From the NCBI GenBank assembly GCA_033391075.1, contig JAWPMV010000001.1, positions 4,216,001 through 4,280,000 of the forward strand: a DNA stretch of 64,000 nucleotides, in the 5' to 3' direction. The translations under genes and the position numbers were made by a program. The DNA is from Bacteroidia bacterium. Its GTDB lineage: Bacteria; Bacteroidota; Bacteroidia; J057. Positions 51,160 to 53,480 of this stretch are shown here, piece after piece. Numbering within the stretch: the stretch's first letter is position 1; every line of letters starts with the position of its first letter. The notes below the pieces were generated by a model. The model ran no database searches and was not told the origin of the DNA. It saw only the letters and a program-made list of their open reading frames with translations.

Positions 51160-51588
51160 TTAGTCTCTTTTGCGCTCCTCTTTCAGCAAATGTTCGTCTA
51201 TTTCATTGATAATATCGGCTATACCGGTATAGGCCATCGGCTTGGGTATAAATACCTCAGCCCCCAACTCAAGTACCTCTTTGTGTAACTCGACATCTTC
51301 AATATCTGAAATGATCGCAACCGGAATATGTTCAAAGACCTCATGAGCTTTCAACTCAATCAGGGTTTCTTTGCCATCTTTGCCGGGCATATTCAGGTCC
51401 AAAAGTATTAAATGAGGAAGTAGGGAAAAGCTCTGATGCAATTTCTGCATGCTTTCGATAAGGGCATCGCCACTTTTAAAGCACTTTATCTGATATGTAG
51501 GTCCGTGTTCACCATTACCCAGTTGAAATAAATGTAGAAAGGCCGCATCATCGTCTGCATAAAAAATTAAGGGTAAATTCGTTTTCAT
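51160..51588 (-). CDS. Single-domain response regulator (receiver only)
   Basis: 142 residues forming one CheY-like domain: acidic patch ADDDAAF, phospho-acceptor Asp64 in LILLDLNMPGKDG, Thr/Ser switch region VAIISDIED, and the Lys in FIPKPMAYTG. An insertion (GNGEHGPTYQ) after the first helix is seen in the CheY-like group common in this phylum. No output domain, so it passes phosphate to a partner encoded elsewhere. No kinase gene is adjacent. Confidence 0.9.
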   Translation of the reverse strand: MKTNLPLIFYADDDAAFLHLFQLGNGEHGPTYQIKCFKSGDALIESMQKLHQSFSLLPHLILLDLNMPGKDGKETLIELKAHEVFEHIPVAIISDIEDVELHKEVLELGAEVFIPKPMAYTGIADIINEIDEHLLKEERKRD

Positions 51589-51841
51589 TTATCTATTTAA
51601 CCATTCGACATCCAAAGTATAGTTTGCCCCTATACTTGACAAGCCAACTGACATGGATGGTCTGTTTATTTCCCTGTTCCGAACTAATTGCCTCCCAATC
51701 AGAGCCCAATGCTTTTTAAAAGCTAACTCCCTCATTTTCTGAACGATTGATCAATTTTTGACCTTATTTTTATAATCGTAGCATATAGAAATATGCTATA
51801 ATCTATAAATCAGGCTTGAACTGCGTTTCGGCTTTGATGGA

Positions 51842-52134
51842 CCCACCGCCTCAGGCCCACACTCCCTTGTTCATACGAACAAAGGAGTGCGCACAGGGCC
51901 AGTATAAATAACCGAAGAGGTCCAGCGACTCTACACCACCATCCGTGCGTTGGCCCGGCAGAGCCCATTAGGAGAAGGGGCGGCTTGTGAGGCTGGCTTT
52001 GGGCTCTGCGATTTTTGCCCACTTTTTCTAAAAAAGTGGGACATAAACCTAAACTACCCTTCTTCAAAATCTTTCCCTAACAAACTAAAACACATCAATA
52101 TCAAGTAAGTATGTTGCATACAGGACTTAGTGAT
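51842..52134. repeat. 293-bp hairpin-rich repeat, copy 1
   Basis: First of three tandem units. It differs from copies 2 and 3 at only a few positions, for example CCCGGCAGAGCCCATTAGG against CCCTGCAGAGCCCATCGGG. It contains the same three hairpins as copy 2. The left border is abrupt near 51842. The minus-strand frame through it is described under findings. Confidence 0.93.
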
Positions 52135-52427
52135 CCCAGCGCCTCAGGCCCACACTCCCTTGTTCATACGAACAAAGGAGTGCGCACAGGGCCAGTATAA
52201 ATAACCGAAGAGGTCCAGCGACTCTACACCACCATCCGTGCGTTGGCCCTGCAGAGCCCATCGGGAGAAGGGGCGGCTTGTGAGGCTGGCTTTGGGCTCT
52301 GCGATTTTTGCCCACTTTTTCTAAAAAAGTGGGACATAAACCTAAACTACCCTTCTTCAAAATCTTTCCCTAACAATCTAAAACACATCAATATCAAGTA
52401 AGTATGTTGCATACAGGACTTAGTGAT
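52135..52427. repeat. 293-bp hairpin-rich repeat, copy 2
   Basis: Hairpin A: CACTCCCTTGTTC/GAACAAAGGAGTG (52153-52182, one mismatch), enclosed by GGCCC (52147-52151) and GGGCC (52189-52193). Hairpin B: GCAGAGCCCA/TGGGCTCTGC (52251-52302, 32-nt loop). Hairpin C: CCCACTTTTT/AAAAAGTGGG (52311-52333, 3-nt loop). An AT-rich linker of about 81 bp then leads to copy 3. Confidence 0.95.
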
Positions 52428-52639
52428 CCCAGCGCCTCAGGCCCACACTCCCTTGTTCATACGAACAAAGGAGTGCGCACAGGGCCAGTATAAATAACCG
52501 AAGAGGTCCAGCGACTCTACACCACCATCCGTGCGTTGGCCCTGCAGAGCCCATCGGGAGAAGGGGCGGCTTGTGAGGCTGGCTTTGGGCTCTGCGATTT
52601 TTGCCCACTTTTTCTAAAAAAGTGGGACATAAACATAAA
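52428..52639. repeat. 293-bp hairpin-rich repeat, copy 3 (212-bp core only)
   Basis: Identical to the core of copy 2 up to about 52634 and then diverges, without the linker. The core unit is therefore about 212 bp and the linker was carried along in the duplication. Confidence 0.93.
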
Positions 52640-52728
52640 TCACTCTCTTTCAGTATATTCCAGAAAAAAGCCCCAAAAAGCTCAAATATCCATTTACGCA
52701 AAACGTAAGACCTTTGAGGGATTCTTCA

Positions 52729-52784: not shown

Positions 52785-53480
52785 ATGGCGAATAAACCAC
52801 AAAGCAAAAAAGCCCTGGATCTAAAATCATTTTCTATTCCCATTATATGGGAAGGCGAGGATGAAGTACCGGAAATGCCCTTTCCCCCTGCAATGGAATT
52901 AGCCTTTAGTGCTGCTACCAATGCGATTTTGGGAGGTATGCAGGCGATGATGCAAGAAGGAGTAGAATCCTATTCTGATTATAGTTCCGGTAAAATTGAC
53001 CAGAATCAATATACCTACAGGGTTTTTGTAAAAGGTACCCAATCAGCCATCAGGAACGGAAGTAAAACCGTTGTTGCTTTGGGTGTTAAAGAAGGGGCCA
53101 AAGTGGTTGCAAAAAAAGTGGGGAAAGAAAGTCTCAAACGTTTCGCCAAATCCAATGCCATGACCGCCATTTGTTTTGGGCTCGTAGATCAGGGAACTGA
53201 TGCCTACAAGTTCAGCCAGGGGCAAATGTCAGGTACAGAATTCAAGATCAGAACCTCAGAAAATATAGGGAGCACTTCAGGAGCCATAGGCGGTGCTGCC
53301 ATAGGAGCAATGCTAGGTTCTATTGTCCCCGGTTTGGGCACAGGTGCGGGTGCCGCATTGGGATATATGGCCGGAGCACTGGGAGCCTCTGGAGGAGCCA
53401 ATCTCGGTAAATCCGTAGGAGAATACTTTTTCCTTGAGGATCAATCAGATAAAAAGGAAGATAGCTCCGAAAAATCCTAA
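52785..53480 (+). CDS. Glycine-zipper protein, unknown function
   Basis: 231 residues, no signal peptide. The N-terminal 45 residues are polar/proline-rich (EVPEMPFPPAMELAF). Middle helices include ILGGMQAMMQEGVESYSDYS and KEGAKVVAKKVGKESLKRF. A long glycine-zipper region at about 160-215 (GAIGGAAIGAMLGSIVPGLG, then GAGAALGYMAGALGASGG) should insert in or associate with membrane as two helices. The tail is acidic/basic (EDQSDKKEDSSEKS). Glycine zippers of this type occur in pore-forming toxins, Rcs/17-kDa proteins and effector-like proteins; which applies is unknown. The next gene (82 bp on) is a TerB/LETM1 protein. Confidence 0.74.
   Translation: MANKPQSKKALDLKSFSIPIIWEGEDEVPEMPFPPAMELAFSAATNAILGGMQAMMQEGVESYSDYSSGKIDQNQYTYRVFVKGTQSAIRNGSKTVVALGVKEGAKVVAKKVGKESLKRFAKSNAMTAICFGLVDQGTDAYKFSQGQMSGTEFKIRTSENIGSTSGAIGGAAIGAMLGSIVPGLGTGAGAALGYMAGALGASGGANLGKSVGEYFFLEDQSDKKEDSSEKS

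What the first reader, a model, noticed from the sequence alone, without database searches (positions are those of the whole stretch)
51842..52639. Three tandem copies of a hairpin-rich 293-bp unit, nearly identical, with no recognised family
The period is 293 bp between both pairs of copies, the copies differ at only a few bases, and the 212-bp core holds three stems (13, 10 and 10 bp) plus a GGCCC/GGGCC clamp. The third copy lacks the 81-bp linker. Near-identity means recent duplication or gene conversion; strong, repeated structure suggests a structured RNA or a non-autonomous mobile element. The GC-rich core stands out from AT-rich surroundings. No transposase is present.
Basis: seen in the sequence. 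Interest (0 to 1): 0.7.

Follow-up and report, generated by a model that had tools for sequence, protein, structure and literature searches.

The report
Triplicated end of dispersed hairpin element
Three near-identical copies in a row turn out to be one end of a small, gene-free, folding DNA element scattered about a hundred times through this bacterium's genome; related genomes keep the fold but rewrite its letters, and what moves it is unknown.

Summary
In detail: three direct copies, period 293 bp, at 51842-52639+, with the stems described. It is not a plain local duplication. The last ~100 nt of each core is a dispersed module: stem A around a G-rich loop, GATTTTTG, then an A/T hairpin with variable arms. 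The same genome gives 116 model matches; four same-family genomes give 78, 14, 5 and 2. Stem letters differ between and within genomes but stay paired (30 copies, 100% of cells paired, 6 of 20 pairs changed on both sides, 0 of 500 shuffles as high). Two kinds of module form inverted pairs: 31 of 31 close pairs join type 1 to type 2/3, a left and a right end of a ~180-350 bp element; the window holds three solo right ends in tandem. No target duplication, linked gene, reverse transcriptase or intact Y1 transposase was found; other transposase families were not searched. Best reading: a REPIN/MITE-like non-autonomous family with fold-conserved ends, mover unknown; the array is a local amplification. 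A cis-acting RNA or terminator role is not excluded. No Rfam or phage relative was found, and no convincing plasmid one.

The parts
51842..52053 (+). copy 1 core (212 bp)
52054..52134 (+). 81-bp AT-rich linker, first copy
52135..52346 (+). copy 2 core
52347..52427 (+). 81-bp linker, second copy
52428..52639 (+). copy 3 core, linker absent
51854..51900 (+). copy 1 5' hairpin domain: GGCCC clamp around the 13-position stem; outside the array BLAST found its unit positions 1-70 only at L010 (84% identity)
52147..52193 (+). copy 2 5' hairpin domain
52440..52486 (+). copy 3 5' hairpin domain
51956..52041 (+). module 1 (type 1, right end), G-rich strand
   Evidence: covariance model R2: 78.9 bits, E 1e-15; R2 was built with window-array sequence among its rows
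52249..52334 (+). module 2 (type 1, right end)
   Evidence: R2: 86.4 bits, E 2.2e-17
52542..52627 (+). module 3 (type 1, right end)
   Evidence: R2: 86.4 bits, E 2.2e-17
52251..52302 (+). stem A of module 2: arms 52251-52260 and 52293-52302 around the G-rich loop (module 1: 51958-52009; module 3: 52544-52595)
52303..52310 (+). GATTTTTG tract of module 2 (module 1: 52010-52017; module 3: 52596-52603)
   Evidence: aligned
52311..52333 (+). A/T hairpin of module 2, CCCAC-TTTTT..AAAAA-GTGGG (module 1: 52018-52040; module 3: 52604-52626)

Best explanation
The array is a local triplication of a solo right-end module of a non-autonomous, REPIN/MITE-like dispersed element. Shown: the complete element is a left module (type 2 or 3) and a right module (type 1) in inverted orientation, A/T hairpins outermost, ~180-350 bp in all, with no room for more than a very short gene; modules conserve a fold (stem A, loop, T tract, A/T hairpin) while stem letters change in pairs; solo and tandem right ends occur. 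Inferred: an enzyme supplied in trans recognises the folded single strand of the ends and copies the element into intergenic gaps; tandem arrays such as this one arise when an end plus its neighbouring DNA is amplified by slippage, unequal exchange or aberrant transposition, and copies stay alike by recency or gene conversion. The enzyme was not identified, and in this genome it may be lost.
For: 116 model matches at E<=0.01 in the own genome and 78, 14, 5, 2 in four of the 12 other family genomes (a few of the weakest may be chance or antisense matches of the A/T hairpin, as seen). All 31 close inverted pairs with hairpins outward are heterotypic, expected share 0.47, p 6e-11. 33 of 35 G010 stems fully paired through five variants, and a structure test with 0 of 500 shuffles as high. 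Each of five genomes has its own stem sequence(s). Presence/absence between two same-genus genomes at one syntenic locus. Among 99 of the 116 matches whose places I could list, close pairs (<400 bp) are inverted with hairpins outward or tandem; one search adds two hairpin-to-hairpin contacts, both within the tandem elements of L013. 0 of 38 G010 and 7 of 60 own modules fall inside ORFs of >=100 aa. No mobile-element gene by eye among the 25 largest ORF clusters beside modules.
Against: No mover found: the one Y1 (PF01797) match of the own genome has R where the relatives aligned have the Y of YI..Q. Y1 genes in the relatives searched have no module beside them (the scan gave four hits in 20 loci, none of which looks like a module). 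DDE and other transposase families were not searched. No strand bias: 25 of 53 right ends, 12 of 31 other modules with the G-rich strand leading. No target duplication. One syntenic case cannot separate gain from loss. The longer dispersed own copies are 82-94% identical to the window unit, so movement is not shown to be current.
Confidence: 0.62

Rival explanations
1. A cis-acting RNA element: on the G-rich strand stem A followed by U4-7 is a dispersed intrinsic terminator or mRNA-end structure, spread by gene conversion and kept for transcription control.
For: GC-rich stem plus T tract plus second hairpin on one strand in the modules of five genomes. Wobble-type cells lean to the G-rich strand, 10 against 5, not significant, p 0.30. 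Upstream gene co-directional in 56 of 91 (p 0.035); within tandem gene pairs 37 of 56 (p 0.022).
Against: In the own genome alone 33 of 57, p 0.29, and 12 of 57 modules lie between divergent genes against 22 of 166 background pairs. The window array lies between divergent genes, 51160-51588- and 52785-53480+. The terminator scan does not call it (its loop limit is 8). Left-right pairing as inverted elements is not expected of terminators.
Confidence: 0.2
2. REP sequences of a TnpA-REP (RAYT) of the Bacteroidetes subclass 2.6, whose genes are reported to be flanked by atypical secondary structures with copies elsewhere in the genome.
For: PMC6006769 passages. Relatives G002, G003, G010 and G012 hold such proteins flanked by stem-loop repeats, tandem in several (by eye).
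Against: No match to such a protein in the own genome or in G004, both with modules. The repeats beside those genes have other stems and loops; loop similarity to modules is not significant (20 loops, lowest p 0.003 twice, uncorrected).
Confidence: 0.1
3. A classic MITE moved by a DDE transposase.
For: Inverted ends, small size, no gene. The two ends are partly alike in loop and outer flank. DDE transposases of this genome were not searched.
Against: No target-site duplication in 24 complete elements: best offset 2 of 24. Stem sequences of the two ends differ.
Confidence: 0.05
4. A SINE-like RNA copied back by a reverse transcriptase.
For: Some lean to one folded strand, not significant.
Against: No RVT_1 match in the own genome, which has the most module matches; G010, G004 and G002 do have RVT_1 matches, G001 does not.
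Confidence: 0.03

Closest known systems
REPINs / REP sequences with RAYT (TnpA-REP) transposases
   Same: Dispersed, extragenic, inverted doublets with hairpins; singlets and near-identical tandem clusters including flanking DNA also occur (PMC3116915, passages); lineage-specific sequences.
   Different: Ends are ~100 nt with two helices, not the 20-40 bp given for REPs in the abstract of PMC3733652 (start of abstract seen); left and right ends are different types; the GTAG foot was not looked for; no linked RAYT found.
Atypical structures beside TnpA-REP subclass 2.6 (Bacteroidetes)
   Same: Phylum; atypical secondary structures repeated in the genome (PMC6006769, passages).
   Different: Repeats found here beside such genes have other stems and loops; no such protein match in the own genome. 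The paper's figures and supplement, which show its structures, were not seen.
BrickBuilt MITE of Porphyromonas gingivalis
   Same: Intergenic Bacteroidota MITE carrying a minisatellite (PMC4596501, abstract only); several complete elements here hold GTGTTAGN octads.
   Different: No sequence comparison was made; BrickBuilt has a 23-nt unit and small inverted-repeat ends.
Intrinsic terminator (recalled description)
   Same: GC-rich stem then T tract on one strand.
   Different: Loop of about 30-36 nt, a second A/T hairpin after the tract, inverted-pair architecture.

Membership tests
REPIN/REP | dispersed inverted doublets able to form hairpins | tested here: met
   31 of 31 close outward inverted pairs heterotypic; 14 such pairs among 99 listed model matches
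REPIN/REP | RAYT gene in the genome flanked by the same repeats | tested here: not met
   own genome: one PF01797 match, tyrosine column R, no module beside it; no match to a subclass-2.6-like protein
REPIN/REP | GTAG/GTGG foot at the hairpin base | not tested
   no scan for it was run
DDE-type MITE | terminal inverted repeats alike in sequence | tested here: inconclusive
   stem sequences of left and right ends differ, loop and outer flank are partly alike; read from alignments, no identity computed
DDE-type MITE | target-site duplication | tested here: not met
   best 2 of 24 elements at any offset
IS200/IS605 non-autonomous derivative | lagging-strand preference (abstract of PMC6006769) | tested here: not met
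   25 of 53 right ends, 12 of 31 others; origin and terminus placed only by 20 skew samples; an inverted doublet may hide a bias
Rfam families | match at gathering score | tested here: not met
   0 matches in the window and in 17 loci; E-value search of the array gave only a microRNA family far below its threshold
intrinsic terminator | transcript ends at the T tract | not testable with these tools
   no expression data

The most novel reading that the evidence does not exclude
A class of small mobile elements whose two ends are recognised by shape rather than sequence: a lineage-specific stem-loop joined to the tail GATTTTTTG plus an A/T hairpin with changing, compensated arms. A tail of the same build occurs in Sphingobacterium, a Chitinophaga MAG and Campylobacterota contigs (these were selected by the tail pattern itself), so the class may span phyla with an unknown mover. 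The A tract and the hairpin's A/T run have the same length in 73 of 96 modules (copies are related, so this is not 96 independent events), which hints at one factor reading both.
Probability: 0.2. Interest if true: 0.75.

Novelty: new variant of a known kind. Interest (0 to 1): 0.5.

Why it matters
Dozens of copies of one fold with compensated stems in a single genome are a natural mutation series for finding what a mobile element's mover recognises. If the ends are read as folded single strands, this family gives a direct test of shape-based end recognition and of how right ends become tandem arrays. It also warns annotators: the TTG-start ORFs that run through these copies (51810-52067, 52127-52360, 52420-52701, all minus) are probably not genes.

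Tried and rejected
Plain local duplication: rejected by dispersed copies and covariation. Protein-coding repeat: open minus-strand frames exist in each copy, but compensated stems and dispersed hairpins do not fit coding; no codon test was run. Intrastrand triplex (idea from the equal tract lengths; PMC4666352, first part of ten read): not pursued, because in several copies no base separates the T-tract G from the hairpin arm, which I judge too short for a third strand; no computation was made. Y1 transposase by proximity: none (nine genomes). Reverse transcriptase: none in the own genome. Target duplication: none. Strand bias: none. Phages: no match; plasmids: two Borreliella hits of 36 bp. 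Viral contigs: one pattern, 0.

Weak or spoiled searches. One search used a wrongly written pattern that found nothing even in the own genome; its zero means nothing. One search's exact loop pattern gave eight places in six relatives; by the flanks printed only the G002 one (C60) is a module, the rest look like chance. (phylum): 2 of 247 genomes with a match, the window's own among them; only 17 candidates per genome were scored, so it is insensitive, and the other match (G259) is borderline. One search scored at most 150 candidates per genome, 40 of 111. One search left out 9 type-1-like and 6 type-2-like rows for lack of an anchor, one of them a window copy; some are real modules, some decayed or unrelated. 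The type counts come from letter patterns without a fold check and may hold a few chance or decayed matches. One search left out G010 copies without the expected anchor spacing (30 kept; one search had 35). One search examined 60 of the 80 listed loci (20 further G010 loci skipped).

Literature: searches listed no paper that, from titles and abstract starts, describes this repeat; the library lacks most subscription journals. PMC2267715: no mention of four Bacteroidota names. PMC3733652: listing and passages only.

Full report
Observation. The window (G000:C1:4216001-4280000 of a 9.49-Mb assembly) holds one tandem array, 51842-52639, period 293 bp, 2.7 copies. Copies 1 and 2 differ at 5 of 293 positions, copies 2 and 3 at 1 of 212. 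The stems and the GGCCC/GGGCC clamp are as described, except that the 13-position stem has one C/A mismatch. The array lies between a response-regulator receiver gene on the minus strand (51160-51588; Pfam PF00072) and an ORF of no known family on the plus strand (52785-53480; no Pfam or NCBIfam match at E<=0.01), so it sits in a divergent gap.

Dispersal. BLAST of the core against the own genome gave 54 places, with 40 of 111 candidates scored. Apart from the array, nearly all cover only unit positions ~95-212; the 5' hairpin domain (1-70) recurs once, at L010. I fetched 40 stretches and later more. A covariance model (R1) built from 13 own modules and one from relative G002 found 116 matches at E<=0.01 in the own genome, 78 in G010, 14 in G004, 5 in G001 and 2 in G002; of the other eight family genomes G007 gave one weak match and seven gave none, and two of nine genomes from other families of the order gave one borderline match each. 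At most 150 candidates per genome were scored; a few of the weakest matches may be chance or antisense hairpin matches, as one search shows.

Anatomy of the module. On the window's plus strand: stem A (GCAGAGCCCA/TGGGCTCTGC here) around a G-rich loop of about 30-36 nt, then GATTTTTG, then an A/T hairpin whose outer arms vary (CCCAC/GTGGG here). Other genomes use other stems: GAAGCGAGC or GAAACGGGC in G010, GGGGAAT-type in G004, GTCGCCT in G001, GCGGATTTC in G002. In G010, five different stem A sequences occur and 33 of 35 copies are fully paired; the two exceptions carry extra DNA before the right anchor. A test on 30 aligned G010 copies gave 100% of 600 cells paired, 6 of 20 pairs with changes on both sides, 0 of 500 shuffles as high for pairing, double changes or covariation score, and far lower values when the partner is slid. 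One measure, further pair types, was not above shuffles (500 of 500). Most double changes separate two subfamilies, so the number of independent events is smaller than the 31 changed cells. In the own genome 460 of 477 type-1 stem cells and 176 of 184 type-2 cells are Watson-Crick (9 and 6 rows left out). Which strand folds in the cell is open: wobble-type exceptions lean to the G-rich strand, 10 against 5, not significant.

Element. Own modules fall into type 1 (62), type 2 (29) and type 3 (8) by letter pattern (74 fetched loci, no fold check). All 31 close inverted pairs with hairpins outward join type 1 to type 2 or 3; expected 47% if free, p 6e-11. All 8 close direct pairs are type 1 with type 1, two of them the window array; locus L013 holds three elements in tandem, which gives the two hairpin-to-hairpin contacts. 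So the dispersed unit is an element with a distinct left and right end, and the window shows three solo right ends. In 24 elements both outer hairpins could be placed; they span 180-346 bp, and no offset shows a target duplication in more than 2 of 24. No mobile-element gene stands out by eye in the 25 largest of the clusters of 574 ORFs (>=90 aa) around modules; the largest cluster covers 5 loci.

Mobility. In the same-genus pair G010/G002 a module lies between two genes in G010 where in G002 the genes nearly abut, and G002 has one in a neighbouring gap where G010 has other DNA and, by eye, none. This is turnover, but gain and loss cannot be told apart. The own genome has one Y1-transposase (PF01797) match, with R at the column where three aligned relatives have Y, and no module beside it; no reverse transcriptase match; no match to a subclass-2.6-like RAYT protein. 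Other transposase families were not searched. Relatives have such RAYT-like proteins, flanked by other stem-loop repeats; loop similarity to modules is not significant over 20 comparisons. Orientation to replication is even, 25 of 53 right ends and 12 of 31 others. Orientation to genes is weakly biased: upstream gene on the G-rich strand in 33 of 57 own and 23 of 34 G010 modules (3 and 4 edge cases left out), 56 of 91 together, p 0.035.

Reach. Many are G010; others are Sphingobacterium, a Chitinophaga MAG, Campylobacterota and more, including archaea and Bacilli. Some have a stem A in the expected place and many do not (60 of 80 listed loci examined). Because the pattern selected them, shared ancestry is unproven. 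Viral contigs gave 0 with the same pattern; phages 0 and plasmids two 36-bp hits with the core.

Conclusion. A REPIN/MITE-like non-autonomous family with fold-conserved, heterotypic ends, without a match in the libraries searched; membership in REPIN/RAYT is not claimed because the cognate gene was sought and not found. The strange part is the freedom of the stems with a kept fold. The window array itself is an ordinary local amplification of one end.

Noticed in passing
own genome, e.g. L274:1400-1620, L275:290-385, L277:300-415: Dispersed octad minisatellite (GTGTTAGN)n, often with an inverted second arm: 252 pattern matches at <=1 mismatch against 1 for the reversed pattern. Some lie outside the modules; in several complete elements it forms the middle.
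   Followed up: partly
L309 (G010), L119/L307 (G003), L118 and L314 (G002), L122 (G012): Subclass-2.6-like RAYT genes flanked by stem-loop repeats, tandem in several, each genome with its own stem.
   Followed up: partly
L091, L095, L158, L201 (G010): Modules with an extra small hairpin CCCTTCG..GCTCAGGGC in the loop, apparently one repeat inserted in another.
   Followed up: no
L179, Bacteroidales MAG RGIG9171: Three tandem copies ~212 bp apart of a stretch with the same tail and no stem A found; another small tandem array.
   Followed up: no
L011, L012, L025: Spacers between tandem right ends at different loci look alike by eye.
   Followed up: no
G000 C1: Sampled GC skew changes sign near 2.7 and 6.8 Mb, a rough terminus and origin; one sample of 20, at 1.8 Mb, is off.
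   Followed up: partly
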